Shown here: positions 2,641-63,622 of the stretch, piece after piece
How positions within the stretch are numbered: position 1 is the stretch's first letter
Layout of the letters: every line of letters starts with the position of its first letter
From: Tragulus kanchil
Taxonomy: Eukaryota > Chordata > Mammalia > Artiodactyla > Tragulidae
Assembly (NCBI GenBank): GCA_022376925.1
Contig: JAIOJX010000005.1
Coordinates: forward strand, 11,188,501 to 11,252,500
Direction: 5' to 3'
DNA length: 64,000 bases
Notes under the pieces: model-generated
Told to the model about the DNA's origin: nothing
The model's database searches: none
The model's input: the letters and a program-made list of their open reading frames with translations, nothing else
Made by a program: the position numbers and the translations under genes

Positions 2641-2845
2641 TCCTTCCCGCTCAGCCGGCAAAGAATCTATCTGTAATGCAGAAGCCGCAGGAGGTGCATG
2701 TTCATTCCCTGGATCGGGGAGACCCCTTGGAGAAGGACATGACAACCCACTCCAGTTTCTTGCCTGGTGAATCCCATGGACAGAGGAGCCTAGATGGCTA
2801 CCGCCCATGGGGTCACAAAGAGTTGGACACGACTGAGCAAATAAC
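2641..2845 (+). mobile_element. Bov-tA SINE
   Basis: Sense copy with a degenerate head, the middle segment gacaacccactccagt, and the 3' diagnostic tcacaaagagttggacac. It contains the left edge of duplication D1 at the AGGAGCC motif (2784-2790). Its 3' part recurs at 3900-3961. Confidence 0.92.
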
Positions 2846-5023
2846 GCAGTCCACAGAAGTGTTCAATGAACGATGGTCATTATTAAAGCTATTATATCAT
2901 GCTACAATGATTCGGTGCATCTTTTTTTTTTTCTGTCTTGCACCTGCAGTCAGGTAAGACCAGCAGGCAATATAAATGACTCTGGGAGATGATTGTAGAA
3001 ACCAAACCACTGAGCCGTTACTTCAGTCTCCGGGAAAAGGGCACGTCAGTTAAGAGAGTGTTTATCGGATGCGCACCCCTGCCTTGCAGCAAGCATCTGT
3101 TTCGAGTGTTTCCTGTGTGTGCTGGACCTCTCTGGGGAGAGGCAGATAGAGACGGGACACACTTTCCCAGGTGGTGATTTTATAGCTCCTGGATCTTATT
3201 GAAATCTTGTGGCGGCTGGGACGAGACACATTCTATGAATTCCAGGATATGTTAGCAATGGGCTCACTTTGTAGGTTGGGGATGATAAGGAAACATTTAT
3301 TCTTTCTCGTCTATTCTTTTCTCCAAAGATACAGCCGTTTCTCCTAGTCCCCTTTCTTTCAAAATGACCACTCTGTCAAGACCTCCATTAATGGTGTCCA
3401 AACCACTGACTCCTTCATGAATCATATCCTGGTTAATTGAGGGGGGACTCAAGCAGACATTTTAGATAAAGTCTCTAGGCTGTGAGAAGTAACAGAGGTC
3501 TTATTTCTCTGTGTGTAGCCTATAAACTCCAACCTTAAAAAGATCCTGGAGGAAAAAATAATTTAAACTGGTCTCTGCCTTATTAGGCTGTTCTAGTGAT
3601 TCTGCTCAAGTAAGGAAAGAAAATTCTCAGTGTAGTAGAGGTGTTTCTATGGCCTGTCGTCGACAATTTGACAGTAAGAATCTATTGAGTTTTTCCTGGT
3701 TGGGAGTGATGGGTGGTTTACTCACTTGACGGTGGCTCGTGCTATCTCCGTGTTGCTGAGTGGAACACTTCACTCTGCTCAGCTCACAAAAACATGTCTT
3801 GCACTCAGCTGCCCTCTATTGGCTGGAAAGTGGATTGTTTTCTTCAACAGTGGTTTTCCTGAAAACAGAAGAAAAATTATGTGTTCACAAAAACTCATCA
3901 GGAGCCTAGAGGGCTACCGCCCATGGGGTCACAAAGAGTTGGACATGACTGAGCAAATAACACAGTCCACAGAAGTGTTCAATAAACGATGGTCATTATT
4001 AAAGCTATTATATCATGCTTCCATGATTCGGTGCATCTTTTTTTTTCTGTCTTGCACCTGCAGTCAGGTAAGACCAGCAGGCAGTATAAATGACTCTGGG
4101 AGATGATTGTAGAAGCCAAACCACTGAGCCGTTACTTCAGTCTCCGGGAAAAGGGCACGTCAGTTAAGAGAGTGTTTATCGGATGCGCACCCCTGCCTTG
4201 CAGCAAGCATCTGTTTCGAGTGTTTCCTGTGTGTGCTGGACCTCTCTGGGGAGAGGCAGATAGAGACGGGACACACTTTCCCAGGCGGTGATTTTATAGC
4301 TCCTGGATCTTACTGAAATCTTGTGGCGGCTGGGACGAGACACATTCTATGAATTCCAGGATATGTTAGCAATGGGCTCACTTTGTAGTTTGGGGATGAT
4401 AAGGAAACATCATTTATTCTTTCTCGTCTATTCTTTTCTCCAAAGATACAGCCGTTTCTCCTAGTCCCCTTTCTTTCAAAATGACCACTCTGTCAAGACC
4501 TCCATTAATGGTGTCCAAACCACTGACTCCTTCATGAATCATATCCTGGTTAATTGAGGGGGGACTCAAGCAGACATTTTAGATAAAGTCTCTAGGCTGT
4601 GAGAAGTAACAGAGGTCTTATTTCTCTGTGTGTAGCCTATAAACTCCAACCTTAGAAAGATCCTGGAGGAAAAAATAATTTAAACTGGTCTCTGCCTTAT
4701 TAGGCTGTTCTAGTGATTCTGCTCAAGTAAGGAAAGAAAATTCTCAGTGTAGTAAAGGTGTTTTTATGGCCTGTCGTCGACAGTTTGACAGTAAGAATCT
4801 ATTGAGTTTTTCCTGGTTGGAAGTGATGGGTGGTTTACTCACTTGACGGTGGCTCGTGCTATCTCCGTGTTGCTGAGTGGAACACTTCACTCTGCTCAGC
4901 TCACAAAAACATGTCTTGCACTCAGCTGCCCTCTATTGGCTGGAAAGTGGATTGTTTTCTTCAACAGTGGTTTTCCTGAAAACAGAAGAAAAATTATCTG
5001 TTCACAAAGACTCATCAGGAGCC
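2784..5023. repeat. Tandem duplication D1 (unit about 1.116 kb)
   Basis: Unit 1 is 2784-3899 and unit 2 is 3900-5016. The 7-bp motif AGGAGCC marks all three edges, at 2784, 3900 and 5017. About 20 substitutions and small length changes separate the copies (about 1.7%), the most diverged pair in the window. Most of the unit is unique sequence with only the 3' end of a Bov-tA at its left. Either a real duplication across short homology or two haplotype pieces joined end to end. Confidence 0.95.
3900..3961 (+). mobile_element. Bov-tA SINE 3' fragment (D1 copy 2)
   Basis: Duplicated 3' end of the SINE at 2641-2845. It exists only because of D1 and is not an independent insertion. Confidence 0.85.
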
Positions 5024-5164
5024 TTCTGTCTGTGTGGACCAAGATACAGGTCTATTCTGATTTCAAATTAACATGTTTTTATGAACCTATCCTCTGTTTC
5101 TCATCTCATCTCTTGCCTTGTCTAGTTTCTCTTCTTAATATTTATCTCATTTTATGGATATCCT

Positions 5165-5540
5165 CTTAGTTATTTGCCCTTTGTCTGTCTCCCTGATTGG
5201 AAAGTAAGCTTCATGAAACTTAGGACTTTATTTGCTTCTTTTGTATTCTTGAGCCTCAGAGAATGCCTGGCACTTAGTGGCTGGTCAAAAAATTTGTTGC
5301 TGTTGTTTAGTTGCTAAGTCATGTCCGACTCTGTGATCCCATGGACTGTAGGCCTCCAGGCTCCTCTGTTTGTGGGATTTCCCAGACAAGAACACTGGAG
5401 TGGGGTGCCATTTCCTCCTCCAGGGGATCTTCCTGACCCAGGGATGGAAGCCCCATGTCCTGCTTGGCTGGTAGATTCTTTGCCACTGAGCCACCTGGGA
5501 AGCCCTTGGTCTATAAATAGTAGTTGAATCAATGCATGAG
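5165..5540 (+). repeat. L2 3' end, split by Bov-tA
   Basis: The segment 5165-5298 carries the L2-like order 'gtctccc...gtaagcttcatgaa...atgcctggcac'. The tail resumes after the SINE at about 5508 with a gttgaatcaatg motif. Recognised by pattern only, and the exact subfamily is unknown. Confidence 0.55.
5299..5505 (-). mobile_element. Bov-tA SINE inserted in an L2 remnant
   Basis: Antisense, near full-length copy from tagttgctaagtcatgtcc to cacctgggaagccc. The flanking L2-like sequence continues on both sides, so the SINE is the younger element. Confidence 0.92.
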
Positions 5541-8500
5541 TACCAAGTATATCTTAGAACTGGGTACTGTAATGAAAGGTTAGTAACAGATGGTTCTGGC
5601 CTTGTAGGGCCCACAATCTAGAAGAATTGGACCCAAAAGGATGATGGGTTTAGGAAGAGCTATCAGCACAACGTGTGCTTTGTAATATGGAGGAGACAGG
5701 CTCCAGGGGATTATTCATACTTAACGTTAGTGTTTGAGGAGCTGCCCTGTGGAAGAAAGATTGGACAGTTCAATAGGTTCCAAAGAACGTATCAATATTG
5801 AATTGATAGAAGGCACAGGGAAATAATTTTGACTCCACAAAAATCTCAGAATTGTGTGAAGTCATCTTGGATGACTCTGACCATCCTCAGAGGCACCTAA
5901 TCACGGCCCGCATTCTCACCTGGCCCTGGTGGAGCTGGAGGTTGGCTCCTGTGCTAGCCTAGGCAGGGAGCAGGAAGCTGACTTCACCTTTGACTCTGTT
6001 CCAATTACAGTTTTTACACGTGCACGTGCAAGGAAAAGAGATTCTTATTAAACAGTGAGACAGCTTCTACCGGAAGGTCCGTTGTTCTCCTCCTGCTGCC
6101 CGCTGGCATTGTGGCCAGACTGCTAGGCGTGCAGAAGGATGGAGAAACAGGCAGGGCAGGTGGATGAGGGCAGCCCAAATGAACCCAACAGAGAAAGACT
6201 TGAAGGAGCCGCTGAAGCCAGGCTGGAGATGGCTTTCCTGGGGACCCTCAGGCACAAGGGAGGTCGTAGTGATCTGTCTGTGGGGCATCTGCTAACATGA
6301 GGCCCACGAATCTGATAGACTGCCTGGCATGGAGCATCAAGCTTGGGAACTTGAACTCCTCATTGAGCCCCTTCAGTTCACCTTTGCTTCTGCAGGTGGG
6401 AACTCATCCACTCCCTATAGCAGGAAGGGGGCTCAGCTGCACTTTCGGAGGAGGGGAGGAAAAGCGTCTTTCCTTTTCTACCACAAGATGCGGCCTCTTC
6501 ACCTATATTCCTGGGGGGATTGGCAACCATCTGCAAAGATGACAACGTGTTCTCTTTCCGGTCAACGTCTCTGATCCCTAGAGTCTGGGAGGAAACCAGA
6601 ATGGAGGAAGCGAGCAGTGGGTGCCCTCTCACACAGGACTACACACAAAGAAACACATGGCGGGCAGCAGAAAGAGCCTGTTTTGCTAAAGCAGAATTAC
6701 CGTTTCTAGGCAGCTGCAGTGTTTTCAGGCCAGGGAGAACTCTGTCACACGATTAAGGAGATAGAACCATTTCCAGTTCAGCTAACCTTCCTGCTGTTGC
6801 CGCATCTGTTCAGGGGACCCAGGGGCGTTCTGTCCTTGTGCTCAGGATCTCAGAGCCGATTGGACACTATGCTCATTTTCCCCCCGGCCACTGATTGACT
6901 GGGGTGTGGAAGGCACAGGGAAATAATTTTGACTCCACAAAAATCTCAGAATTGTGTGAAGTCATCTTGGATGACTCTGACCATCCTCAGAGGCACCTAA
7001 TCACGGCCCGCATTCTCACCTGGCCCTGGTGGAGCTGGAGGTTGGCTCCTGTGCTAGCCTAGGCAGGGATCAGGAAGCTGACTTCACCTTTGACTCTGTT
7101 CCAATTACAGCTTTTACACGTGCACATGCAAGGAAAAGAGATTCTTATTAAACGGTGAGACAGCTTCTACCGGAAGGTCCCTTGTTCTCCTCCTGCTGCC
7201 CGCTGGCATTGTGGCCAGACTGCTAGGCGTGCAGAAGGATGGAGAAACAGGCAGGGCAGGTGAATGAGGGCAGCCCGAATGAACCCAACAGAGAAAGACT
7301 TGAAGGAGCCGCTGAAGCCAGGCTGGAGATGGCTTTCCTGGGGACCCTGAGGCACAAGGGAGGTCGCAGTGATCTGTCTGTGGGGCATCTGCTAATATGA
7401 GGCCCACGAATCTGATAGACTGCCTGGCATGGAGCATCAAGCTTGGGAACTTGAACTCCTCATTGAGCCCCTTCAGTTCACCTTTGCTTCTGCAGGTGGG
7501 AACTCATCCACTCCCTATAGCAGGAAGGGGGCTCAGCTGCACTTTCGGAGGAGGGGAGGAAAAGCGTCTTTCCTTTTCTACCACAAGATGCGGCCTCTTC
7601 ACCTATATTCCTGGGGGGATTGGCAACCATCTGCAAAGATGACAACGTGTTCTCTTTCCGGTCAACGTCTCTGATCCCTAGAGTCTGGGAGGAAACCAGA
7701 ATGGAGGAAGCGAGCAGTGGGTGCCCTCTCACACAGGACTACACACAAAGAAACACATGGCGGGCAGCAGAAAGAGCCTGTTTTGCTAAAGCAGAATTAC
7801 CGTTTCTAGGCAGCTGCACTGTTTTCAGGCCAGGGAGAACTCTGTCACACGATTAAGGAGATAGAACCATTTCCAGTTCAGCTAACCTTCCTGCTGTTGC
7901 CGCATCTGTTCAGGGGACCCAGGGGCGTTCTGTCCTTGTGCTCAGGATCTCAGAGCCGATCTATGGACACTATGCTCATTTTCCCCACCTCCGGTCCACA
8001 TACATTTACTTGACATGTGGAGGGATTGGAGAGGGCCATGTGGTTGGACGTGCAGGATGAGCATCAGCTCATCATGCTTGCCAAGAATCAGATGCTCTGC
8101 GAAGATTAATTATGGGCTCAGCCTTTTACATGCTCTGTTGTCCAGGGGACATCTCTGTTGCTCTGAGAAGTTAATACAAGTAATCAAAGCCAACCTGTCC
8201 TCTGCTTGGGGAACACCCCGGCAGGGGTTCTCCTCCCCACTACCCAGACAGACTTCGCTGAATGAGCCCAGGAAACAGCAAAGGGTTGGAGGGAGAATGA
8301 GGTGGGACCAGGGGCAAGGACTTCTCACGGGAAGAGGTGTCGCTCCCCGGGCCAACCGGGGCACAAGCTCCTGCCCCAAACACCAGCAGGACCCTGAATG
8401 TGTTTTTATTAACTGCAATGGTGAGTTCCGTGGGAGGAATAATTCCCACAGATCATGCTGCATGGAATACAAATTGTTTTCTTGCTGCTGTGCTGCTATT

Positions 8501-9260: not shown

Positions 9261-9490
9261 TCTTTTCAATTTTTTTTAACTTCCTGCCATGAGCTTTCTT
9301 AGTCATTTATTATTTTCATCCATCTTTATTCTTTGGCCTGTGTGGGCCTCCCATTGCAGTGGCCTCCCTCGTTGCAGAGCACTGGTCCAGCTGCTCTGCT
9401 GCACATGGGATCTTCCCAGTCCAGGGATTGAACTGGTGCCCCTTGCACTGCAAGACGGTGTCCTTACCCACTGGACCACCAGGGAAGCCC
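9261..9490 (-). mobile_element. CHR-derived SINE, young subfamily
   Basis: Antisense insertion with tail at 9261-9290 and head ending gaccaccagggaagccc. It is flanked by a perfect 16-bp target-site duplication TGTCCCAAGCAGTTTT at 9245-9260 and 9491-9506. It shares the body 'ttctttggcc..gtgggcctccc' with the copies at 13339, 20021, 27038, 29403, 36518, 44342 and 53728, but carries an internal deletion. Confidence 0.92.
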
Positions 9491-11549
9491 TGTCCCAAGC
9501 AGTTTTGCTGCACAATTAATTGTGGGCCATTAAGACAACTTTGCCATAAAGGAATAATAATAGTAGAATAAAAGGACCTTAAAAGGGACACAATGAACTA
9601 TAAAAAATTAATAACAAATCTTCACAGAGGTTATATGGTGAAAAATGAAAGTACAAAAAATATTTTCATATAGTCAAAATGTATGTAGATTCATAATGGT
9701 AGTTTTTTTTTCTTATTTTCTTTTATTCTGCACTGCATCCAAAGATTATGTTTTACTTTGATCATGATCTCCACATTATTCTACCTGCTAAGTAAAGCCT
9801 ATTTCTTAAATAGGAATACTCCATATCTAATGAAGATGGCATTTTTTAGAGCTCTTTGATACGACACCCCAAGAAGCATATACTGCATAGAGGTGGCCAG
9901 TATTCTAAAGCTAGATTTTCTTGTAGGGGTAGTTTTATTCCTATATATCATGGAGAAAACTATACTTGCTTTCTCAAAGGCAGTCGTGAAGGATTCAGGG
10001 TCTAATGTCAGATCGAAATCTTCTATGATACAAAAAAATCTGCCGAGTCTCCTCAGATGTCCCTGAAAGTAAAACGAACAGACAAAGAATGCGGCTATTT
10101 CTTATCAATATACATACCTTCTCTAATGGGGAGCACATGGCTGGACTCCATTGAAATGTGACAGGGCACCCCAGTCCTTGTATTTCACCCGGTCATCTGA
10201 GCCAGATTCTGGGCCAGATTCCATGGTTCTGCCTCCATTGTGTTCTCCACCTTCAAATAGCAAAAAGAAGTCACTATTTTCAAGAAACTTCTATTCTTCA
10301 GGAGAAACTTGATCTATCTTTTGACTTCAGCTTCTAGTATTGTGCGATACATTTGGTAAATTTGACATGATAGAGCAAGCTGTTTTACCGAGAATTCGCT
10401 GAAGAATCAACCCCTGAGGCCCCTCGTCAGTTACTGCCTTTCTGTTTTATATTTGCCATAGCCTTTTTGCCGATGTGCTGCTCTGCTGCACATGGGATCT
10501 TCCCAGTCCAGGGATTGAACTGGTGCCCCTTGCACTGCAAGACGGTGTCCTTACCCACTGGACCACCAGGGAAGCCCTGTCCCAAGCAGTTTTGCTGCAC
10601 AATTAATTGTGGGCCATTAAGACAACTTTGCCATAAAGGAATAATAATAGTAGAATAAAAGGACCTTAAAAGGGACACAATGAACTATAAAAAATTAATA
10701 ACAAATCTTCACAGAGGTTATATGGTGAAAAATGAAAGTACAAAAAATATTTTCATATAGTCAAAATGTATGTAGATTCATAATGGTAGTTTTTTTTTCT
10801 TATTTTCTTTTATTCTGCACTGCATCCAAAGATTATGTTTTACTTTGATCATGATCTCCACATTATTCTACCTGCTAAGTAAAGCCTATTTCTTAAATAG
10901 GAATACTCCATATCTAATGAAGATGGCATTTTTTAGAGCTCTTTGATACGACACCCCAAGAAGCATATACTGCATAGAGGTGGCCAGTATTCTAAAGCTA
11001 GATTTTCTTGTAGGGGTAGTTTTATTCCTATATATCATGGAGAAAACTATACTTGCTTTCTCAAAGGCAGTCGTGAAGGATTCAGGGTCTAATGTCAGAT
11101 CGAAATCTTCTATGATACAAAAAAATCTGCCGAGTCTCCTCAGATGTCCCTGAAAGTAAAACGAACAGACAAAGAATGCGGCTATTTCTTATCAATATAC
11201 ATACCTTCTCTAATGGGGAGCACATGGCTGGACTCCATTGAAATGTGACAGGGCACCCCAGTCCTTGTATTTCACCCGGTCATCTGAGCCAGATTCTGGG
11301 CCAGATTCCATGGTTCTGCCTCCATTGTGTTCTCCACCTTCAAATAGCAAAAAGAAGTCACTATTTTCAAGAAACTTCTATTCTTCAGGAGAAACTTGAT
11401 CTATCTTTTGCCTTCAGCTTCTAGTATTGTGCGATACATTTGGTAAATTTGACATGATAGAGCAAGCTGTTTTACCGAGAATTCGCTGAAGAATCAACCC
11501 CTGAGGCCCCTCGTCAGTTACTGCCTTTCTGTTTTATATTTGCCATAGC
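9391..11549. repeat. Tandem duplication D3 (period 1087 bp)
   Basis: Unit 1 is 9391-10462 and unit 2 is 10478-11549. The left edge lies inside the SINE at 9261-9490, so unit 2 begins with a truncated SINE. The roughly 15-bp spacer resembles a shortened version of the native sequence after 11549. Copies are virtually identical. Overlaps D4, so 11166-11549 exists three times. Confidence 0.95.
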
Positions 11550-13338
11550 TGGATAAACTTTTGGTGTTGGCCGGTGGGAGGGATAACTTGTGTTCCCTGG
11601 GGGATTTGCAAGCACTATGCAATCATTTTCCAGTAGAGAATGCAGTCTGGCTTTATACTGTCTTATCTCACACTTCCGGTACATTTTCTTAGCACTTTAT
11701 TTTCCATCAACTTGACATTTGTGGTTGTTATCCTTGGGCTAGCCCAGAGTTCACAAATGATTGTAAAATCCACAATACTCTTTATTGTAAATTCCACACA
11801 GCTGATTGATATTTGTACAATGCTTTTATTGATTTCCCTGGTCTCTTGCATCCACTGTCAACCTACGGTTGGGATCAGACCATGAACTGACAACATCAGA
11901 CTACCAATAAATGGTTCCTTCCTATCCAGTTCAGCAAAGCCATTCAAGGCATGGAGAAATGAGTATAGTGGGTGCTTCAACTTCCTTTGAATAACATGAA
12001 AGAGAAAAAAATGAAGACATGAAGACACTCCATTCATTTACCAGTATGTGTCTTCTTCCCTTAGTCAACCATAGTTTTTGAGTACTAGCAGAATGTTTCC
12101 TCGTTTGGGGGATATTTACCATCTGGTTGCCACAGATATGACATAGTGTGATGTGTAATCTGCATCATTAACATTTTCTCCATCATCTTCTTAACTCTGG
12201 ACAAGCAACAAAAAAATAAACAAACCCGTGGTTTGTAGTGACTGCCGTTTTTTGTCAGACAAAGAATGCGGCTATTTCTTATCAATATACATACCTGCTC
12301 TAATGGGGAGCACATGGCTGGACTCCATTGAAATGTGACAGGGCACCCCAGTCCTTGTATTTCACCCGGTCATCTGAGCCAGATTCTGGGCCAGATTCCA
12401 TGGTTCTGCCTCCATTGTGTTCTCCACCTTCAAATAGCAAAAAGAAGTCACTATTTTCAAGAAACTTCTATTCTTCAGGAGAAACTTGATCTATCTTTTG
12501 CCTTCAGCTTCTAGTATTGTGCGATACATTTGGTAAATTTGACATGATAGAGCAAGCTGTTTTACCGAGAATTCGCTGAAGAATCAACCCCTGAGGCCCC
12601 TCGTCAGTTACTGCCTTTCTGTTTTATATTTGCCATAGCTGGATAAACTTTTGGTGTTGGCCGATGGGAAGGATAACTTGTGTTCCCTGGGGGATTTGCA
12701 AGCACTATGCAATCATTTTCCAGTAGAGAATGCAGTCTGGCTTTATACTGTCTTATCTCACACTTCCGGTACATTTTCTTAGCACTTTATTTTCCATCAA
12801 CTTGACATTTGTGGTTGTTATCCTTGGGCTAGCCCAGAGTTCACAAATGATTGTAAAATCCACAATACTCTTTATTGTAAATTCCACACAGCTGATTGAT
12901 ATTTGTACAATGCTTTTATTGTTTTCCCCTGGTCTCTTGCATCCACTGTCAACCTACGGTTGGGATCAGACCATGAACTGACAACATCAGACTACCAATA
13001 AATGGTTCCTTCCTATCCAGTTCAGCAAAGCCATTCAAGGCATGGAGAAATGAGTATAGTGGGTGCTTCAACTTCCTTTGAATAACACGAAAGAGAAAAT
13101 AATGAAGACATGAAGACACTCCATTCATTTACCAGTATGTGTCTTCTTCCCTTAGTCAATCATGGTTTTTGAGTACTAGCAGAATGTTTCCTCGTTTGGG
13201 GGATATTTACCATCTGGTTGCCACAGATATGACATAGTGTGATGTGTAATCTGCATCATTAACATTTTCTCCATCATCTTCTTAACTCTGGACAAGCAAC
13301 AAAAAAATAAACAAACCCGTGGTTTGTAGTGACTGCCG
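9507..13338. other. Unique AT-rich non-coding sequence carrying D3 and D4
   Basis: Apart from the duplications I see no recognisable repeat or gene. The repeated frame of about 81 codons at 11640 and 12730 begins with a hydrophobic stretch. It differs between copies only by an indel that changes its end, and it has no recognised homologue. Confidence 0.5.
10478..10577 (-). mobile_element. Truncated CHR-derived SINE (D3 copy 2)
   Basis: Head half only, identical to 9391-9490. It is a product of D3, not a separate insertion. The right-hand target-site copy follows, but the left one is missing. Confidence 0.88.
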
Positions 13339-13345
13339 TTTTTTT
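11166..13345. repeat. Tandem duplication D4 (period 1090 bp)
   Basis: Unit 1 is 11166-12255 and unit 2 is 12256-13345, abutting directly. The junction falls where the T-tract of the SINE at 13339 begins. In unit 1 that tract is short and runs straight into CAGACAAAG. A few single-base and homopolymer differences separate the copies. Confidence 0.95.
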
Positions 13346-16234: not shown

Positions 16235-16556
16235 TATTTTTAAAATATTTATCTTACTTATTATTTAGTTATGGCTGTGCTGGGTCTTCTCTGCCGAGTG
16301 CAGGCTTTCTCTAGTTCCAGCAAGAAGGAGCTACGCTCTCACTGCAGTGCTCGGTCTTCTCACTGCGGCGGCTTCTCCCGTTTCGGTGGGTGGGCTCCAT
16401 AGTTGTGACTCGTGGGCTCTGGAGCACAGGCTCAGAAGTTGTGGCCCATGGACTTAGTTACCCTGCAGCGTGTGGAATCTTCCTGGACCAGGCATCGAAG
16501 CCATGTCCCCTGCACTGGCAGGCAAAGTCTTAACCACTGGACCACCAGGGAAGTCC
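16235..16556 (-). mobile_element. CHR SINE (long form)
   Basis: Antisense, near full-length copy. It has a tail at 16235-16275, then ctgggtcttctctgcc, repeated gcttctc/ctcactgc motifs, and a head ending accaccagggaagtcc. The left edge of D5 lies inside it at 16314. Confidence 0.9.
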
Positions 16557-16613
16557 ATGCCTCTTTTGTTTGCACCATGATGTCTGAATCCATTGTGTGA
16601 TTCTTTTCAAACA

Positions 16614-16765
16614 AGGTTCAAACCCTGGGTCGAGAAGATCCCCTGGGGAAGGGAATGACAACCCACTCTAGTATTCTCGCCTGGGAAAGCCCATGGACAG
16701 ACGAGCCTGTTGGGCTGCGGTCCATGGGGTCGCAAAGAATCAGATGTGACTGAGCGAATGCCACC
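16614..16765 (+). mobile_element. Bov-tA SINE, 5'-truncated
   Basis: Sense copy from the B-box-like ggttcaaaccc through gaagatcccctgg and gacaacccactctagt to gtgactgagcgaatgcc. The tRNA-like head is missing. Confidence 0.9.
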
Positions 16766-17435
16766 TAGATGTACCTGTGGTATTAGAATACACATTTTAA
16801 AATCCTAGGACAGGCTCCTGCTTGAAGATCAACAGTAACAGCATTTCTCTCCTACCTTTAATCCACGCTTATCTATTTTAACGTGCATTTCAAATTGTGA
16901 TCTTAAGCCTCTTGAGACAGTTAATCCCCAGTGTACGAAGCAGCAACCCCCGCCATCAGAGGATGATTAGCCCTAGGAAGGAGACATAGCCAGTGACCTT
17001 GGTAATGAGGCAGCTAGTTAGAGTTAGTGATTTCCAGGTCAGGCCACAGGATGATGCATGGCCAGACAGAGCTCTCCCCGCTAATTTTTCTTGGCTGGAT
17101 CATGACTGAACTAATTCTCATTCAGCCCATATGCCAGCACTTAAATTCACTATGTAGAGTGGTTTAGTTTCAAATTTTCTTTGAAGCGACTTATGCCATT
17201 CAACAGGTAAGATAAAAATATGATCTCTTCCCTTAATAACTTTTAGGATCATGATTCTGGGGCCAATAAAGCATTTAATTCTAAAAACTGCAATAAAAGT
17301 AATTAAACCTTAAAATAAAAACACTTGCGATGAATCTGACCTTTCAAATAATGTACAAAACACATTAGGCATGCTGCCCTGCTTTGATCTGTTCAAGTCC
17401 CAGGATCCTTTTCAAAATCATCTGCATCTGACCAT

Positions 17436-17677: not shown

Positions 17678-17734
17678 ATGCCTCTTTTGTTTGCACCATG
17701 ATGTCTGAATCCATTGTGTGATTCTTTTCAAACA

Positions 17735-19915: not shown

Positions 19916-20020
19916 CAAATGTACTGCCTTTTGCCTTATAGGCTGGCTATGAGAACCAAATGCAGGAAGTGCTTATAAATCATAACCTCCTATAGAAAGA
20001 TGAAATGCTGTAATGTTATT

Positions 20021-41636: not shown

Positions 41637-41637
41637 A

Positions 41638-49454: not shown

Positions 49455-49770
49455 ACCACTTAGATACTGTTGAATAACAAATAACCCCCCAATCTCAGTG
49501 GCTTACCTCACGTGGCATTTATTTGTCTCGCTCGTAGATCTGCCGGCTGGCTGAGGTGCCGCTGATCTTAGTTGAACTTGGTTGGTGATGGCTCCACTTT
49601 GGGCCTCCTTTCTCTCTTTCTGGGACTGGGCCTTCTGGAGCATGGTCTTCTTGTGGTTATGGCGGAAATACAAGAGACCAACTCTGATCAGGCAAGCACA
49701 TCTGAAGCCTCTGTTACATTATTTTCCCTAAAATTCTGTTGTTCAAGTCATGTGACTAAGACAAATATCC
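49455..49770 (+). repeat. Possible old interspersed repeat, unclassified
   Basis: The cues 'aacaaataacccccc..atctcagtggctta', 'ggcatttatttgtctcgc' and 'gttcaagtcatgtgactaag' resemble the same old element type as 44806-45200. Its right part is duplicated at 50758-50857. Confidence 0.4.
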
Positions 49771-49771
49771 A

Positions 49772-50042
49772 TGGGGTGACTCAGTGATAAAGAATTCACC
49801 TGCCAATGCAGGAGACATGCCTTCCATCCCCTGGGCCAGAAAGATCCCGCATGCCTTGGGGCCACTAAGCCCATGTACCACAACTACAGAGCCTGCATGC
49901 CCTAGAGCCTATGGTCAGCAACAAGAGAAGCCACTGCAATGAGAAGCCTGCACACTGCAACTAGAGTACCCTTTGCTCTTTGCAGCTAGGAAAAAGCACT
50001 TTGAGCAACAAAGAACCCCCACAGCCAAACATAAATCCACAA
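49772..50042 (+). mobile_element. CHR SINE (long form)
   Basis: Sense with a diverged head: gtgactcagtgataaagaa, catgtaccacaactacagag, caacaagagaagccactgc and end cacagccaaacataaatcc. Confidence 0.85.
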
Positions 50043-50858
50043 ATACAAGTACCTTTTAAAAAATGGGGTGAGGAAATATTCTTCATTGGTGCTCATGAGA
50101 GATACTGAAGTCACATGCTGAAGATCATGAATATGTAACTCTATATAAGCGGGAAAGAATGAAGAATGGGAAGCAGTCATTCAATCTGCCACAGCCACAT
50201 ATTGGAAAAAACAATGGAAAAATTTCAAGCAGCATAGAAAAACACCCCTGGTGAAGAACACAGGTGTAGATCATTAGTTGACTTGAAAAGACTGATAATC
50301 ACATTATCTTTAAGATTTTGGAGGTTTGTAATAGGGCTTATGCTGACTAGTTCATCTTTCTGGATTAAAAAAAATCAACAAAAATTACAGTTAAATAACA
50401 ACGTGAGTTGAGTGAAAATCTTCTCTATTTGGGAGCTAGACTGTTGGCAGAAATTACTGGAAGAGGTGCAGTATCCGTTTCTGGCTCTTCCGGGAGAGAG
50501 CTGTGTCTTAGGTCACAGAGGTGCCGGGACAAGGTGAGCCCTACAAGCTTTTCTTGGCGTTATGTTCCTGTGATGTCAGCGTTACTTCCCCTCCCAAAAC
50601 CCCAGCTGCGGCCGAGTGTCAGAATGCCGCATGACAGGACCCATGACGGCCTTTGTGAGTTCTTCTTTTGGTTTCTCTCGCAGGAAGTGATGAAGGCGGA
50701 GTGGAAGGCTGCAGGTCCGCCTTGGGGTCCTGGTCCTGGGGTGGCCGATTTTTTACAAAGAGACCAACTCTGATCAGGCAAGCACATCTGAAGCCTCTGT
50801 TACATTATTTTCCCTAAAATTCTGTTGTTCAAGTCATGTGACTAAGACAAATATCCAT
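50043..50858. other. Unique sequence with splice-like motifs
   Basis: No gene called. GACAAGGTGAGCC at 50528-50540 resembles a donor site, and a pyrimidine-rich TTTCTCTCGCAGGAAGTG around 50680-50697 resembles an acceptor. They could be chance. Repeated at 51616 and 51768 in D15 copy 2. Confidence 0.4.
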
Positions 50859-51131
50859 GGGGTGACTCAGTGATAAAGAATCCACCTGCCAATGCAGGAG
50901 ACATGCCTTCCATCCCCTGGGCCAGAAAGATCCCGCATGCCTTGGGGCCACTAAGCCCATGTACCACAACTACAGAGCCTGCATGCCCTAGAGCCTATGG
51001 TCAGCAACAAGAGAAGCCACTGCAATGAGAAGCCTGCACACTGCAACTAGAGAGTACCCTTTGCTCTTTGCAGCTAGGAAAAAGCACTTTGAGCAACAAA
51101 GAACCCCCACAGCCAAACATAAATCCACAAA
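50859..51131 (+). mobile_element. CHR SINE (D15 copy 2)
   Basis: Duplicate of 49772-50042, 2 bp longer in the actagagagtacc region. Confidence 0.84.
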
Positions 51132-52034
51132 TACAAGTACCTTTTAAAAAATGGGGTGAGGAAATATTCTTCATTGGTGCTCATGAGAGATACTGAAGTC
51201 ACATGCTGAAGATCATGAATATGTAACTCTATATAAGCGGGAAAGAATGAAGAATGGGAAGCAGTCATTCAATCTGCCACAGCCACATATTGGAAAAAAC
51301 AATGGAAAAATTTCAAGCAGCATAGAAAAACACCCCTGGTGAAGAACACAGGTGTAGATCATTAGTTGACTTGAAAAGACTGATAATCACATTATCTTTA
51401 AGATTTTGGAGGTTTGTAATAGGGCTTATGCTGACTAGTTCATCTTTCTGGATTAAAAAAAATCAACAAAAATTACAGTTAAATAACAACGTGAGTTGAG
51501 TGAAAATCTTCTCTATTTGGGAGCTAGACTGTTGGCAGAAATTACTGGAAGAGGTGCAGTATCCGTTTCTGGCTCTTCCGGGAGAGAGCTGTGTCTTAGG
51601 TCACAGAGGTGCCGGGACAAGGTGAGCCCTACAAGCTTTTCTTGGCGTTATGTTCCTGTGATGTCAGCGTTACTTCCCCTCCCAAAACCCCCAGCTGCGG
51701 CCGAGTGTCAGAATGCCGCATGACAGGACCCATGACGGCCTTTGTGAGTTCTTCTTTTGGTTTCTCTCGCAGGAAGTGATGAAGGCGGAGTGGAAGGCTG
51801 CAGGTCCGCCTTGGGGTCCTGGTCCTGGGGTGGCCAAATGATGCCAAGACACACCCCCAGGAAGCCTGGTCGCCAAGCCCGGACTGCATCCCTGTGCTGG
51901 AGACGGCTGTGGGCGGGCAGGAACAAGAGACACCTGATGGGTGTGGACAGGGCTTCAGACAGAAGCCAGAGTCTACTTGCAAATTTTTCATACAGAACTT
52001 AGGACCCTCAGAAGTAATCTAGGTGGAACTAAAT
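51132..52034. other. Unique non-coding sequence, D15 copy 2 end and beyond
   Basis: Nothing further recognised. Native context resumes at 51836. Confidence 0.4.
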
Positions 52035-56780: not shown

Positions 56781-57519
56781 TTTAAAAGACAGAATTTATT
56801 ATAGAATAGTGTAGGCTGAGGGAAATGACCAAGAGAGATGAGTCAGGAGAGGGGAAAATGGTGATGTCCTTGAATGAGCCCAAGCAGAGAATTCTGGAAG
56901 GAGCCAGAGGATACAGATTCAGAAGTGGGTAGATTTGTTGGGGAGAAGAATTCTCTTCTGATTTTGTTTCTCTGTGTAATAGGACCAAAGTCACCAGCTG
57001 AGGGGAGAAAAAGGGTATCACTCAGACTATGCCGAGGACCCACGAGGAAAGCAAGACCCGTGTGCAGAGTTACGTGTTTTCTCTAGCCTCACACGACGGC
57101 TTGAGTTTGGGGACTGGACAGGCAGGGAGTTGAATTTAAACCCAGCTGGGATTTACCCAAATGAGCATGACCAATGGAAAGAGGGATGAAGCAGGGAAGG
57201 CAGCATGGACGCTCGTGAGCAGAAGGATGGGCCAGGAGCCCAGGCCAGGAGAGGAGGGAAGTAAGGACAGTGGGCGAGGGGTGGACGTGAAGACGCCAGT
57301 GGTGACGATAGGTTAAACATCCTGAAAGCATTCAAGAGACGTTGGGCCAGCTCACTATAATTCAGATCCCGTTGCGATGTCGGCTTCTGCTCCCCAGGCA
57401 CCTTGCCTCTCTTCATCCTGGTTGGCGGACCCTGTTCATGTTACAGACAGACTTTCTGGACTCACGTCCCCACATAAGCCTGCTTTTGGAATAGTGGACA
57501 GTGGACGGAGCCATCTCAT
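56781..57519. other. Unique non-coding sequence
   Basis: Nothing recognised. The left edge of D16 is at 57253. Confidence 0.45.
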
Positions 57520-57802
57520 ATATTTTTTTTATTTTTTGGTCAGGGTGAGTCTTTGTTGCTACACACGGGCTTTCCTCTAACTGGGGCAAGTGGAGGCTAA
57601 TCTCTAGCTGCAGTGCGTGGGCTTCTCACTGCAGTGGCTTCTCTCAATGCAGAGCACAGGCTGTAGGCATTAGGGCTCCAGTAATTGTGCCACACAGGCC
57701 TAGTTGCTCCAAGGCCTGTGGGATGTTCCCAGACCAGGGATCGAACCAGTGTCCCCTGCACTGCAAGGCGGATTCTTAGCCACTGGACTGCCAGGGAAGC
57801 CC
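57520..57802 (-). mobile_element. CHR SINE (long form)
   Basis: Antisense: tail tatattttttttattttttgg, gtgagtctttgttgctaca, ctcactgcagtggcttctc, ccagaccagggatcgaacc and head gactgccagggaagccc. Confidence 0.91.
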
Positions 57803-58513
57803 TGTGCCCACATGTTTAAACCTTTAGGTAAGAAGGTTCTTCTTCAGAGAGGGAGACATGTGAGAGTCAGCCTTTAACTCAGTGATGTCACAGTATTTTC
57901 TTCTCGTGTAAGCTGCTGTGTATGTGTTTTTAAGGAACTTCCTTCGGCTTGCTTGCTTTTCTATTACGTAGGCAACCACGAGCGAATTTGAATTCTCTCT
58001 TCCCTTTTGGCTTGATGCTCACTCGTGTGACCCCAAGGGCACAAGCTCATGGGCCCCTGACCTCCTGGCAACGCAGCAGAACGGGCCCAGGTTCTGAAGC
58101 CCGGTCAGGGATTGTGGAGCAGAGTCCTCGAAGTCTGGGAAGTCAAAGACACATGATCCATTAACACTGGTCTCCAGTGCGAGTTCAGTGCAGGAAGCAG
58201 GGCACCCAAAGCTGGTGCTCTGTGACAGCCTAGAGAGATAAAGTGGGGAGGGAAGTAAGGACAGTGGGCGAGGGGTGGACGTGAAGACGCCAGTGGTGAC
58301 GATAGGTTAAACATCCTGAAAGCATTCAAGAGACGTTGGGCCAGCTCACTATAATTCAGATCCCGTTGCGATGTCGGCTTCTGCTCCCCAGGCACCTTGC
58401 CTCTCTTCATCCTGGTTGGCGGACCCTGTTCATGTTACAGACAGACTTTCTGGACTCACGTCCCCACATAAGCCTGCTTTTGGAATAGTGGACAGTGGAC
58501 GGAGCCATCTCAT

Positions 58514-58796
58514 ATATTTTTTTTATTTTTTGGTCAGGGTGAGTCTTTGTTGCTACACACGGGCTTTCCTCTAACTGGGGCAAGTGGAGGCTAATCTCTA
58601 GCTGCAGTGCGTGGGCTTCTCACTGCAGTGGCTTCTCTCAATGCAGAGCACAGGCTGTAGGCATTAGGGCTCCAGTAATTGTGCCACACAGGCCTAGTTG
58701 CTCCAAGGCCTGTGGGATGTTCCCAGACCAGGGATCGAACCAGTGTCCCCTGCACTGCAAGGCGGATTCTTAGCCACTGGACTGCCAGGGAAGCCC
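58514..58796 (-). mobile_element. CHR SINE (D16 copy 2)
   Basis: Duplicate of 57520-57802. Confidence 0.9.
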
Positions 58797-59237
58797 TGTG
58801 CCCACATGTTTAAACCTTTAGGTAAGAAGGTTCTTCTTCAGAGAGGGAGACATGTGAGAGTCAGCCTTTAACTCAGTGATGTCACAGTATTTTCTTCTCG
58901 TGTAAGCTGCTGTGTATGTGTTTTTAAGGAACTTCCTTCGGCTTGCTTGCTTTTCTATTACGTAGGCAACCACGAGCGAATTTGAATTCTCTCTTCCCTT
59001 TTGGCTTGATGCTCACTCGTGTGACCCCAAGGGCACAAGCTCATGGGCCCCTGACCTCCTGGCAACGCAGCAGAACGGGCCCAGGTTCTGAAGCCCGGTC
59101 AGGGATTGTGGAGCAGAGTCCTCGAAGTCTGGGAAGTCAAAGACACATGATCCATTAACACTGGTCTCCAGTGCGAGTTCAGTGCAGGAAGCAGGGCACC
59201 CAAAGCCAGTGCTCTGTGACAGCCTAGAGAGATAAAG

Positions 59238-59397
59238 TGGGGAGGGAGGTGGAAGTGGGGTTCAGGACAGGGGGGGACACGTGTATACCTATGGCCAGTT
59301 CATGTTGGTGTATGGTGAAAACCATCACAATGTTGTAAAGTAATTACTGTCCAATTAAAATTAAGCAATACATTTTTAAAAATTAAAAAAAAAAAAC
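59238..59397 (+). mobile_element. L1 3' terminus with poly(A)
   Basis: Sense ruminant L1 3' end: 'ggggagggaggtggaagtgg', 'cacgtgtatacctatggc', 'caatgttgtaaagtaattac' and poly(A) at 59383-59397. Only the last 160 bp are present. Confidence 0.85.
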
Positions 59398-60336
59398 CCA
59401 AACACTGGTATCCTGGGTCAAGCCTCTCTGGTCATCAATTCCCTTAGGTAGAGAAATCAACATTTGAATATCAGCCATCAGAAATATTGTTAGGTCTAAG
59501 CAGTGTGATGTGTGTGGAGTGATAACTGCTCATTAGATATTACCTTTGTTTCTCTTTCTCATCCTATTGGATGTGCTTCCTATGGCAGCATCTGTATCTG
59601 TTCTAGCAAATGAAACCCTTTAAAGAAGCTCAGATGTTTTTGTGTGTGAAACACCCTTACAATTAGAGATGGACGCTCTGCCATCTCAGCTCCTCCTCAG
59701 GCAGCTGCACACAGATCTGTTTTGGGTTGGGAGGCGGGGCCCTTTTCCTGGTCTTCCTCAAAACCCTCATTTGTGCAGCATCCCCAGGGCTCGCGAACAG
59801 CAAGGAAATGAGGGAAGGCAAGCAACATCTGGTGTTAAACAAATACCATCATCTTACAAATGACTCGTCTCTAGGATAGTAATCATTGCATATTGCAGAG
59901 TCTAGGGATGTCAACACCACGACCTAATGCTAGACAAGAAGCACCTGAAAGGCAGTCACAGGCCATCTCTACTGTGTCTCCAGCAAAATTCCATTTTTGG
60001 AGAAAAGAGAAGGTGCTGATGTTCACAGCTTTTTAATCACACCAGACAGAAAGCCCACCTCCTGCTCTCTGTTCTGATGAGATGAATCCTACAAACATAC
60101 GTCGAGACCATGGGTCAGCGTCTGGGGTGATCCTCAGCGGAGGGTGAGCTAACGTGGACCCTGCGAGCATTGTCTGTCTTGTCCCCTTGCCCTCAGCCAA
60201 TACCATTCCTGTGTGCTGCTGCTGCTGGGGCCACTGGGAGATGCTGAGGCGTTCTCAAGCCTCCTCCAGAGGGTTCTGCATGTAAATGGCCAAGACAGAT
60301 GTTTTACCTCTTGCTTCCCCAAAGAAGACGAATGTT
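59398..60336. other. Unique non-coding sequence
   Basis: No gene or repeat recognised apart from a short CTG run near 60217-60230. Repeated at 60501-61445. Confidence 0.45.
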
Positions 60337-60340
60337 AAAG

Positions 60341-60500
60341 TGGGGAGGGAGGTGGAAGTGGGGTTCAGGATAGGGGGGGACACGTGTATACCTATGGCCA
60401 GTTCATGTTGGTGTATGGTGAAAACCATCACAATGTTGTAAAGTAATTACTGTCCAATTAAAATTAAGCAATACATTTTTAAAAATTAAAAAAAAAAAAC
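60341..60500 (+). mobile_element. L1 3' terminus (D17 copy 2)
   Basis: Duplicate of 59238-59397. The left context here is artificial or rearranged, because the sequence before it belongs to the end of unit 1. Confidence 0.83.
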
Positions 60501-61776
60501 CCAAACACTGGTATCCTGGGTCAAGCCTCTCTGGTCATCAATTCCCTTAGGTAGAGAAATCAACATTTGAATATCAGCCATCAGAAATATTGTTAGGTCT
60601 AAGCAGTGTGATGTGTGTGGAGTGATAACTGCTCATTAGATATTACCTTTGTTTCTCTTTCTCATCCTATTGGATGTGCTTCCTATGGCAGCATCTGTAT
60701 CTGTTCTAGCAAATGAAACCCTTTAAAGAAGCTCAGATGTTTTTGTGTGTGAAACACCCTTACAATTAGAGATGGACGCTCTGCCATCTCAGCTCCTCCT
60801 CAGGCAGCTGCACACAGATCTGTTTTGGGTTGGGAGGGGGGCGGGGCCCTTTTCCTGGTCTTCCTCAAAACCCTCATTTGTGCAGCATCCCCAGGGCTCG
60901 CGAACAGCAAGGAAATGAGGGAAGGCAAGCAACATCTGGTGTTAAACAAATACCATCATCTTACAAATGACTCGTCTCTAGGATAGTAATCATTGCATAT
61001 TGCAGAGTCTAGGGATGTCAACACCACGACCTAATGCTAGACAAGAAGCACCTGAAAGGCAGTCACAGGCCATCTCTACTGTGTCTCCAGCAAAATTCCA
61101 TTTTTGGAGAAAAGAGAAGGTGCTGATGTTCACAGCTTTTTAATCACACCAGACAGAAAGCCCACCTCCTGCTCTCTGTTCTGATGAGATGAATCCTACA
61201 AACATACGTCGAGACCATGGGTCAGCGTCTGGGGTGATCCTCAGCGGAGGGTGAGCTAACGTGGACCCTGCGAGCATTGTCTGTCTTGTCCCCTTGCCCT
61301 CAGCCAATACCATTCCTGTGTGCTGCTGCTGCTGGGGCCACTGGGAGATGCTGAGGCGTTCTCAAGCCTCCTCCAGAGGGTTCTGCATGTAAATGGCCAA
61401 GACAGATGTTTTACCTCTTGCTTCCCCAAAGAAGACGAATGTTAATGAATCATTTTTTAAACGCTTAACTCCTGTTAGGCTGCGACGGGAACGGCATTGC
61501 GCCATCCTTGTCCTTGACATCCGCTTGGTCAATCTTCTCGCCTCTTAACACGATTTTTTCCTCTCTGTCAACTGAAATCCATCACCTAGTTTCAGGTGAG
61601 GCAATCGGTCACCTCCCCCTGGCTCAGGCCACCAAGGATCCTCTCTGTAAGGTCTCAGACAAGCCCTCCACCACCCAGTGGTGTATCCTAGGACACGCGA
61701 TGTCATATACCAGCTGTGGATGTGTTTGTTTTGTCTTGCAGAGTGTTTTGAACAGAAACCAATGGTTTATTTACAA
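60501..61776. other. Unique non-coding sequence, D17 copy 2 and beyond
   Basis: Nothing recognised. A 100-codon plus-strand frame at 61508 runs into the hAT element and is duplicated by D18. No family resemblance. Confidence 0.45.
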
Positions 61777-61963
61777 CAGGGGCCCCCAACCTCTGGGATC
61801 TAATGCCTGATGATCTGAGGTGGAGCTGATGTAATCATACTAGAAAGAAAGTGCACAGTAAGTGTAATGCACTTGAACATCCTGAAAACATCCCTACCCC
61901 ATCCTTGGAAAAAATTTCTTCTAAGAAACTGGTCCCTGGTGCCAACAAGGTTGGGAACCACTG
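61777..61963. mobile_element. MER1-type hAT-Charlie element (non-autonomous)
   Basis: 187 bp with terminal inverted repeats CAGGGGCCCCCAACC at the left and GGTTGGGAACCACTG at the right. An 8-bp target-site duplication with one mismatch (ATTTACAA and GTTTACAA) lies at 61769-61776 and 61964-61971. The internal phrase 'taatgcctgatgatctgagg' is characteristic. No transposase. Confidence 0.85.
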
Positions 61964-62225
61964 GTTTACAACATTTAAGACATTTCATATAAACATCTAA
62001 ATTCTCAGTTTCTCTGGGCAAAAAAAATCCCCAAAGATTTGGCAATGCTGGGTTAACGTTTTCACATTAGCAACAGTGGGCTGCTCCTTCTAGATGCGCC
62101 GTTGCTATTCAGTTTGCCGTGGACCCCACTACTCTCTAATGCCGCCCTTTGGACTTAGGTCAAAGTTAGTGTCAGGCAACTGGCTCACCCTCCATGGTTT
62201 CAAACTATATTAAAAGGTATGGTAA

Positions 62226-62446
62226 GGGCTTCCCTGGTAGTCCAGTGGTTGAGAACCTGCCTGCCGATGCAACATATATCAGTTCGATCCCTGCCCCAGG
62301 AAGATCCTACATGCTATGGAACAGTTAAGCCCATGCACCACAACAAGTAAGTCCACTCATCCCAACTTCTGCTGAAGCCCGGACCCCACAGAACCCATGC
62401 TCCACAACTAGAGAAACCACTGAAGTGAGAAGCTTGCACACCACAA
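62226..62446 (+). mobile_element. CHR SINE, 3'-truncated (D18 copy 1)
   Basis: Sense: gggcttccctggtagtccag (A box), cagttcgatccctgcccc (B box), catgcaccacaacaagtaag. It is cut at the D18 junction. The complete element is at 63312-63622. Confidence 0.9.
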
Positions 62447-62861
62447 GATGCCTTCCTCCAGAGGGTTCTGCATGTAAATGGCCAAGACAGATGTTTTACC
62501 TCTTGCTTCCCCAAAGAAGACGAATGTTAATGAATCATTTTTTAAACGCTTAACTCCTGTTAGGCTGCGATGGGAACGGCATTGCGCCATCCTTGTCCTT
62601 GACATCCGCTTGGTCAATCTTCTCGCCTCTTAACACGATTTTTTCCTCTCTGTCAACTGAAATCCATCACCTAGTTTCAGGTGAGGCAATCGGTCACCTC
62701 CCCCTGGCTCAGGCCACCAAGGATCCTCTCTGTAAGGTCTCAGACAAGCCCTCCACCACCCAGTGGTGTATCCTAGGACACGCGATGTCATATACCAGCT
62801 GTGGATGTGTTTGTTTTGTCTTGCAGAGTGTTTTGAACAGAAACCAATGGTTTATTTACAA

Positions 62862-63049
62862 CGGGGGCCCCCCAACCTCTGGGATCTAATGCCTGATGAT
62901 CTGAGGTGGAGCTGATGTAATCATACTAGAAAGAAAGTGCACAGTAAGTGTAATGCACTTGAACATCCTGAAAACATCCCTACCCCATCCTTGGAAAAAA
63001 TTTCTTCTAAGAAACTGGTCCCTGGTGCCAACAAGGTTGGGAACCACTG
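62862..63049. mobile_element. MER1-type hAT element (D18 copy 2)
   Basis: Duplicate of 61777-61963. The left terminus reads CGGGGGCCCCCC, one substitution and one extra C compared with copy 1. Confidence 0.83.
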
Positions 63050-63311
63050 GTTTACAACATTTAAGACATTTCATATAAACATCTAAATTCTCAGTTTCTC
63101 TGGGCAAAAAACCTCCCCAAAGATTTGGCAATGCTGGGTTAACGTTTTCACATTAGCAACAGTGGGCTGCTCCTTCTAGATGCGCCGTTGCTATTCAGTT
63201 TGCCGTGGACCCCACTACTCTCTAATGCCGCCCTTTGGACTTAGGTCAAAGTTAGTGTCAGGCAACTGGCTCACCCTCCATGGTTTCAAACTATATTAAA
63301 AGGTATGGTAA

Positions 63312-63622
63312 GGGCTTCCCTGGTAGTCCAGTGGTTGAGAACCTGCCTGCCGATGCAACATATATCAGTTCGATCCCTGCCCCAGGAAGATCCTACATGC
63401 TATGGAACAGTTAAGCCCATGCACCACAACAAGTAAGTCCACTCATCCCAACTTCTGCTGAAGCCCGGACCCCACAGAACCCATGCTCCACAACTAGAGA
63501 AACCACTGAAGTGAGAAGCTTGCACACCACAACTAGAGAGTAGCCCTCCTCTCTGAAAGCAGAGAGAGCCCTTATGCAGGCTTTCAAAGACCCAGCACAG
63601 CCAAAAGTAAGTAAGCAAACAC
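63312..63622 (+). mobile_element. CHR SINE (long form), full length
   Basis: Sense copy continuing past the D18 edge: gaagcttgcacaccacaact, agagtagccctcctctctg, aaagacccagcacagcc and a short A-rich tail. Confidence 0.92.

What the first reader, a model, noticed from the sequence alone, without database searches (positions are those of the whole stretch)
2784..63532. Eighteen two-copy tandem duplications with near-constant period
Direct comparison shows 18 separate head-to-tail duplications (D1-D18) of unrelated DNA. The periods are about 1116, 1100, 1087, 1090, 1121, 1043, 1097, 1106, 1069, 1138, 1096, 1095, 1193, 1086, 1087, 994, 1104 and 1085 bp. Sixteen of the 18 lie between 1.04 and 1.14 kb. 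All are direct, all have exactly two copies, and they recur every 1.8-7.5 kb. No known genomic process makes dozens of independent duplications of one size per 64 kb. The likely explanation is sequence pieces that overlap by about 1.1 kb and were abutted instead of merged. If real, it would be an unknown size-determined duplication process. Either way, about 19.7 kb of this window is redundant.
Basis: partly seen in the sequence, partly recalled or inferred. Interest (0 to 1): 0.9.

Follow-up and report, generated by a model that had tools for sequence, protein, structure and literature searches.

The report
Genome-assembly overlaps mistaken for duplications
Nearly a third of this stretch of a ruminant-like genome repeats the DNA just before it, almost certainly because the assembly software laid overlapping pieces end to end instead of merging them, so it is a data error and not biology.

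Summary
In detail: 18 direct, abutting duplications (period 994-1193 bp, median 1095.5; 97.96-100% identical) make 19,703 of 64,000 bases redundant. The window lies in a held 3.17-Gb, 32-contig genome. 20 of 20 further 10-kb stretches from 12 other large contigs carry 2-5 such junctions: 57 in 197 kb, 30.3% redundant. Of 5 stretches near contig starts, 4 carry 1-2 (some of other size) and 1 none. No process known to me duplicates a genome so densely at one size. Internal signs also point to abutted, independently called consensus units. Differences between copies pile up in the outer 50 bp of the overlaps (window 34 of 107 against 9.8 expected; sample 85 of 183 against 16.7). Inserts at junctions resemble corrupted flank. 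Interlocking neighbours give three copies. The overlap length is not a fixed k-mer. The best specific source, not proven, is a fuzzy-Bruijn-graph long-read assembler of the wtdbg type, which works with 1024-bp read segments (PMC10989838). I put the abutted-overlap artefact at about 0.97 and the wtdbg-type origin at about 0.6.

The parts
2784..5024 (.). D1: copies 2784-3907 / 3900-5024, period 1116, 97.96% id, 8-bp shared word at junction; 18 substitutions
5809..7986 (.). D2: copies 5809-6883 / 6909-7986, period 1100, 98.70% id; 25-nt insert at junction resembling corrupted continuation of the upstream unit (p 0.017)
9390..11549 (.). D3: copies 9390-10462 / 10477-11549, period 1087, 99.91% id
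11166..13344 (.). D4: copies 11166-12253 / 12256-13344, period 1090, 99.17% id; interlocks with D3 (384-bp three-copy zone)
16314..18548 (.). D5: copies 16314-17427 / 17436-18548, period 1122, 99.19% id
19503..21590 (.). D6: copies 19503-20547 / 20546-21590, period 1043, 99.52% id
24458..26642 (.). D7: copies 24458-25545 / 25555-26642, period 1097, 100% id
26502..28708 (.). D8: copies 26502-27600 / 27608-28708, period 1106, 99.73% id; interlocks with D7 (141 bp)
29523..31618 (.). D9: copies 29523-30600 / 30592-31618, period 1069, 99.49% id over the main segment; upstream copy has 48 extra bp near its end
33122..35400 (.). D10: copies 33122-34262 / 34260-35400, period 1138, 99.91% id
36073..38282 (.). 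D11: copies 36073-37180 / 37169-38282, period 1096, 98.92% id; 7 of 10 differences within 20 bp of one or the other end
40290..42468 (.). D12: copies 40290-41373 / 41385-42468, period 1095, 99.36% id; all 6 differences in the first 67 bp
42155..44538 (.). D13: copies 42155-43341 / 43348-44538, period 1193, 99.41% id; interlocks with D12 (314 bp)
46998..49176 (.). D14: copies 46998-48084 / 48083-49176, period 1085, 99.27% id
49669..51835 (.). D15: copies 49669-50746 / 50754-51835, period 1085, 99.54% id
57253..59259 (.). D16: copies 57253-58268 / 58247-59259, period 994, 99.41% id; copies overlap by 22 bp at the junction
59233..61445 (.). D17: copies 59233-60338 / 60336-61445, period 1103, 99.55% id; interlocks with D16 (27 bp)
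61366..63532 (.). D18: copies 61366-62446 / 62450-63532, period 1084, 99.45% id; interlocks with D17 (80 bp)

Best explanation
The duplications are false. The assembly was built as a chain of independently called consensus units that share about 1.1 kb with each neighbour, and at these junctions the step that should merge neighbours at their shared end did not, so the units were laid end to end. Shown here: the pairs are in the file; the same thing occurs in 20 of 20 fetched stretches of large contigs; differences between copies pile up near the ends of the overlap; junction inserts resemble corrupted flank; about a quarter of junctions sit on a short shared word. Inferred: that the units are neighbours in a wtdbg-type fuzzy Bruijn graph sharing one vertex made from 1024-bp read segments (the observed median, 1099, is 7% larger), and that the joiner took short spurious end matches or simply abutted the ends. 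How many other joints were merged correctly cannot be seen. The figure below is for the abutted-overlap artefact; the wtdbg-type origin I hold at about 0.6.
For: Recurrence: 57 junctions in 197 kb, 20 of 20 stretches, 30.3% redundant, against 18 junctions and 30.8% in the window. With the D1 region as probe, 21 of the 43 listed repeat matches fall in 10 groups 0.95-1.22 kb apart on 7 contigs; only 40 of 1,236 candidates were scored. Differences in the outer 50 bp: 34 of 107 in the window (rotation null 9.8, p 2e-4, the floor of that test) and 85 of 183 in 46 sampled pairs (null 16.7, p 3e-4, likewise the floor). 35 junction inserts of 4 or more bases, D9 left out, resemble the continuation of the upstream unit (p 0.005) and the lead-in of the downstream unit (p 0.034). 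Exact shared words of 3 or more bases at 15 of 64 junctions against 2.1% expected, binomial 4e-12. Interlocking units with three-copy zones. The period is not constant in raw or homopolymer-compressed length: coefficient of variation 3.6% and 3.3% over all 18, and 2.0% raw for the 16 central ones. Wtdbg2 chops reads into 1024-bp segments that become vertices (PMC10989838, passage).
Against: No reads, no layout file and no second assembly could be examined, so read depth and spanning reads are untested. The assembler is not named anywhere I could see. The median period of 64 pairs (1099) is 7% above 1024, with a right tail to 1218 and one unit of 1765. Start-to-start spacings show no 256-bp grid (coherence 0.15 at 256; best 0.49 at 304 among 250 values tried, so not meaningful). 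Short shared words at junctions also occur in real microhomology-mediated duplication, and a comparison made to see whether the joiner trimmed ends at such words gave no support. D1 and D2 hold 29 of the 73 window substitutions, more like two haplotypes than consensus noise. Stretches near contig starts are less regular: C20 has no junction, C29 has units of 1581 and 1739 bp, and pairs on C1 and C25 differ mainly by substitutions.
Confidence: 0.97

Rival explanations
1. Real tandem duplications made by an unknown process that copies about 1.1 kb head to tail all over the genome, for example template switching with microhomology joining.
For: The pairs are in the sequence; 15 of 64 junctions have an exact shared word of 3 or more bases, as microhomology joining would give.
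Against: 57 junctions per 197 kb in 20 of 20 stretches means about 0.9 million in the genome if typical, while the full-length pairs measured there and in the window are 97.7-100% identical. Differences cluster at the overlap ends, which mutation after duplication would not do. Inserts look like corrupted flank. The real processes with a preferred size named in PMC10169359 (passage read) give averages of 11 kb, 231 kb and 1.7 Mb, in tumours.
Confidence: 0.005
2. Same kind of artefact, but the overlapping units come from another program (a scaffolder, a gap closer or another graph assembler) and not from a wtdbg-type one. This rival competes only with the wtdbg part of the best explanation.
For: No assembler name was seen; the median period is not 1024; no 256-bp grid in spacings.
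Against: A fixed-k graph would give a constant overlap in raw or homopolymer-compressed bases; it is not constant. Fixed polishing chunks would give regular spacing; collapsed spacings range from 689 to 6499. Scaffolders normally leave runs of N (general knowledge), and the window has none.
Confidence: 0.37
3. Unmerged haplotypes (heterotype duplication): the two copies are the two alleles, placed one after the other.
For: D1 (18 substitutions) and D2 (11) differ like alleles; transitions exceed transversions 51 to 22 in the window.
Against: 16 of 18 window pairs differ at 10 or fewer places; D7 is identical, D3 and D10 differ once each; 2 of 46 sampled pairs are identical. Length is near constant and differences favour the ends. 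In the sample indels (102) outnumber substitutions (81) and ts:tv falls to 45:36. Allele differences probably add to, but do not cause, the pattern.
Confidence: 0.03

Closest known systems
False homotype duplication, 'overlapping sequences at contig boundaries' (Vertebrate Genomes Project, PMC8081667; passages read)
   Same: One locus written twice, head to tail, because sequences that overlap at a boundary were not merged.
   Different: [quoted passage not shown] Here it is 1.1 kb, without N at the window's junctions, inside contiguous sequence and about three times per 10 kb.
Duplicated overlapping contigs, DOCs (Kelley and Salzberg 2010, PMC2864568; passages read)
   Same: Neighbouring pieces whose ends align to each other and should be joined there.
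   Different: DOCs are separate contigs, kept apart by haplotype difference; [quoted passage not shown] Here the cases are within contigs and mostly near-identical.
wtdbg-type fuzzy Bruijn graph units (PMC10989838, PMC12037172; passages read)
   Same: Vertices of 1024-bp read segments and a separate consensus program make neighbouring units that share about 1 kb plausible.
   Different: The observed overlap is about 1.1 kb and scattered, and such programs are meant to merge. That units share a vertex and are merged by aligning their ends is from recall; the method paper is not held.
Tandem duplicator phenotype in tumours (PMC10169359, passage read)
   Same: Many tandem duplications with a preferred size.
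   Different: Averages of 11 kb, 231 kb or 1.7 Mb, in tumour cells; not 1.1 kb about three times per 10 kb.

Membership tests
False homotype duplication (VGP) | Same locus present twice in tandem in the assembly | tested here: inconclusive
   Tandem copies are present: 18 pairs in the window, 57 junctions in 20 stretches. That both are one locus is inferred, not shown, as no reads were available
False homotype duplication (VGP) | Located at contig or unit boundaries | tested here: inconclusive
   Unit layout not available; end-of-overlap errors and corrupted inserts imply boundaries
False homotype duplication (VGP) | Gap between the copies after scaffolding | tested here: not met
   No N in the window; copies abut within -22 to +91 bp. 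So this is a within-contig relative of the VGP type, not that exact type
False homotype duplication (VGP) | Size about one corrected read | tested here: inconclusive
   1.1 kb is short for a long read, but the reads were not seen
False homotype duplication (VGP) | Read-depth and k-mer copy anomalies, consensus quality differing with read coverage | not testable with these tools
   No reads available; only the sequence trace (85 of 183 differences in the outer 50 bp) was measured
Duplicated overlapping contigs (DOC) | Ends of two neighbouring pieces align to each other | tested here: inconclusive
   18 of 18 window pairs align over about 1.1 kb, but the piece boundaries themselves are inferred
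Duplicated overlapping contigs (DOC) | The pieces are separate contigs | tested here: not met
   The window is one stretch of contig C6 without N
Duplicated overlapping contigs (DOC) | Mate pairs fit better when the pieces are joined | not testable with these tools
   No mate pairs
wtdbg-type unit overlap | Overlap near 1024 read bases, scattered by read noise | tested here: inconclusive
   Median 1099, IQR 1089-1133, range 994-1218 for 64 pairs; 7% above 1024
wtdbg-type unit overlap | Unit boundaries on a 256-bp grid (recalled) | tested here: inconclusive
   No coherence at 256 among 17 spacings; the grid need not survive consensus
Real tandem duplication | Differences spread evenly along the copies | tested here: not met

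The most novel reading that the evidence does not exclude
A real, genome-wide process in this animal duplicates about 1.1 kb in tandem roughly three times per 10 kb, joining on short shared words.
Probability: 0.004. Interest if true: 1.

Novelty: not a real feature. Interest (0 to 1): 0.12.

Why it matters
As biology it is nothing, but as data it matters. If the 20 stretches are typical, about 30% of a 3.17-Gb genome record (about 0.96 Gb, extrapolated) is redundant. Exons, SINEs and tRNA-like sequences would be counted double, reading frames broken, and gene-family, copy-number and repeat analyses that use this record misled; none of these effects was measured here beyond one doubled tRNA-like call and doubled SINE hits. 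The signature (period mostly 1.09-1.13 kb, direct, abutting, differences at overlap ends) is easy to screen for in other assemblies.

Tried and rejected
Fixed-k overlap: rejected, since raw and homopolymer-compressed lengths both vary with a coefficient above 3% over the 18 pairs. Regular polishing chunks: rejected, since spacing is irregular. 256-bp grid in unit spacing: none seen. Trimming by a joiner: 24 junctions where the copies overlap were compared with 40 where they do not. The period does not differ (p 0.79); mean head differences are 1.04 against 1.15 and tail differences 1.21 against 0.5 per pair (these two not tested statistically), which gives no support for trimming on spurious matches. 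Protein-coding genes in the window: 10 of 186 open frames of 80 or more residues were given to Pfam, no match at E 0.001; the other 176 were not tried. Rfam: no match at gathering scores. Viral contigs: no exact match to a SINE word. A planned test on a long single-exon essential gene (RAG1, Pfam PF12940, recalled) in this genome could not be run: 13 tries were answered 'busy', and RAG2 once. Papers: in the listings, several of them capped (20 of 519, 20 of 26, 10 of 26), I saw no title or abstract beginning that describes this 1.1-kb within-contig artefact; only the passages named were read, and those of PMC9240058 did not bear on it. So I make no claim that it is unreported.
Full report
What is there. 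The E-value is 0.0 for the 17 pairs whose row is visible; the row of D6 was cut there, but one search shows it. Periods have mean 1094.6, sd 39.7 and median 1095.5 bp; 16 of 18 lie in 1.04-1.14 kb. Redundant bases are 19,703 of 64,000.

What kind of genome. The dispersed repeats of the window give two consensuses that I recognise, from recall, as Bov-tA/Bov-A2 and CHR SINEs. A giraffe paper describes Bov-tA, Bov-A2 and CHR SINEs in ruminants (PMC8620236, passages read). The window is G000:C6:11188501-11252500 of a genome of 3,167,203,957 bases in 32 contigs. The contigs whose length I saw include 12 of 73-297 Mb and C1 of 126 Mb. I do not name the species.

The same pattern elsewhere. In the first whole-genome look, with the D1 region as probe, 21 of 43 listed repeat matches fall in 10 groups spaced 0.95-1.22 kb apart on 7 contigs; only 40 of 1,236 candidates were scored, so this is a part. 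I then fetched 20 stretches of 10 kb from 12 other large contigs, at round-number positions chosen without looking. All 20 carry 2-5 junctions: 57 in 197 kb free of N, 2.9 per 10 kb, 30.3% redundant (junctions cut by a stretch end and one unit of period 1765 are included), against 18 in 64 kb and 30.8% in the window. Over 64 complete pairs (18 window, 46 sample; pairs cut by a stretch end or outside period 900-1300 were left out) the period has median 1099, IQR 1089-1133 and range 994-1218. Of 5 stretches near the starts of other contigs, C1 and C10 have one junction each (1016 and 1105 bp), C25 two (1260 and 1128), C29 two of another size (1581 and 1739), and C20 none. So the pattern is dense on the large contigs but not literally universal.

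Signs of independent consensus. In the window 34 of 107 differences lie in the outer 50 bp of the overlaps, against 9.8 when positions are rotated (p 2e-4); without D1 and D2 it is 29 of 75 against 6.9. In 46 sampled pairs it is 85 of 183 against 16.7 (p 3e-4), and indels (102) exceed substitutions (81). These p-values are the floors of the tests. On the small contig C29 single-base indels are the commonest difference in each of three pairs about 97% alike, as unpolished long-read consensus would show (inference), but pairs on C1 and C25 differ mainly by substitutions. Mutation after a real duplication has no reason to favour the ends.

Signs at the junctions. 36 junction inserts of 4 or more bases were tested. 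They resemble the true continuation of the upstream unit (p 0.0025) and the lead-in of the downstream unit (p 0.05); without D9, which has a 48-bp length difference, p is 0.005 and 0.034 for 35 inserts. In the window alone the evidence was weak (p 0.033 and 0.37, 9 inserts). At 15 of 64 junctions the ends share an exact word of 3 or more bases against 2.1% expected, and at 8 of 64 a word of 5 or more against 0.2% (binomial 4e-12 and 5e-13). I read these as chance end matches that a joining program took, but the comparison made to look for trimming at such words gave no support for that detail.

Interlocking. In 5 of 17 neighbouring window pairs the shared ends overlap, and for 4 of them one search shows the common zone three times. 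That is what follows if a unit is shorter than two overlaps. The number of overlapping neighbours is as expected for random placement (5 against 6.3, p 0.31), but none starts closer than 689 bp (p 0.004), as if units had a least length.

Mechanism. Neighbouring consensus units sharing about 1.1 kb were laid end to end. The overlap is neither an exact k-mer (coefficient of variation 3.6% raw, 3.3% homopolymer-compressed over 18; 2.0% raw for the 16 central ones) nor tied to a regular chunk, and it scatters as an interval counted on noisy reads would (inference). Wtdbg2 cuts reads into 1024-bp segments, merges them into vertices and connects vertices (PMC10989838, passage read), and a separate program makes the consensus (PMC12037172, passages read). 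That neighbouring units share one vertex and are merged by aligning their ends is from recall; the method paper is not held. The 7% excess over 1024 would fit reads that lose bases on balance, which I could not test. How many joints were merged correctly is invisible here. I hold the wtdbg-type origin at about 0.6.

Compared with what is known. The closest known kind is the false homotype duplication at contig boundaries (PMC8081667, passages; also PMC9516828, passages) and the duplicated overlapping contigs of 2010 (PMC2864568, passages). The gap between copies that the first describes is not met here, and the second deals with separate contigs, also not met. It works like both, but sits inside contigs. 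The real tandem-duplication processes with a preferred size named in PMC10169359 (passage) average 11 kb or more.

Verdict. Not a biological feature. What remains open is which program did it and whether read depth confirms it.

Noticed in passing
window 36127-36200 and 37223-37296: A tRNA-Arg(TCT)-like gene called by ARAGORN appears twice because it lies in D11; Rfam has no match there at gathering score.
   Followed up: partly
window 2784-5024 and 5809-7986: D1 and D2 hold 29 of the window's 73 substitutions, spread along the copies, as if the two units came from different haplotypes.
   Followed up: partly
window 30501-30548: 48 bp present near the end of the upstream copy of D9 and absent from the downstream copy; could be an allele or a consensus error.
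   Followed up: no
L030 (C1), 6095-8130: A pair with 32 substitutions and 2 indels, 32 of these 34 packed in a quarter of the copy; looks like a switch of haplotype or paralogue inside one unit.
   Followed up: no
L017 (C4), 6382-9873: One overlap unit of period 1765, far above the rest; 790 bp of the preceding pair match it as well, so a zone is present three times.
   Followed up: no
L032 (C20, 20001-30000): No near-identical tandem pair in this 10-kb stretch of a 251-kb contig, unlike the large contigs.
   Followed up: no
G000, whole genome: 13 contigs of 73-297 Mb were seen, so chromosomes look few and large for a ruminant-like genome; species not determined.
   Followed up: no
L001 (QGGY01000030.1): A 3840-bp contig titled UNVERIFIED_CONTAM in a Murimonas intestini genome contains an exact 25-base word of the window's SINE consensus.
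   Followed up: no
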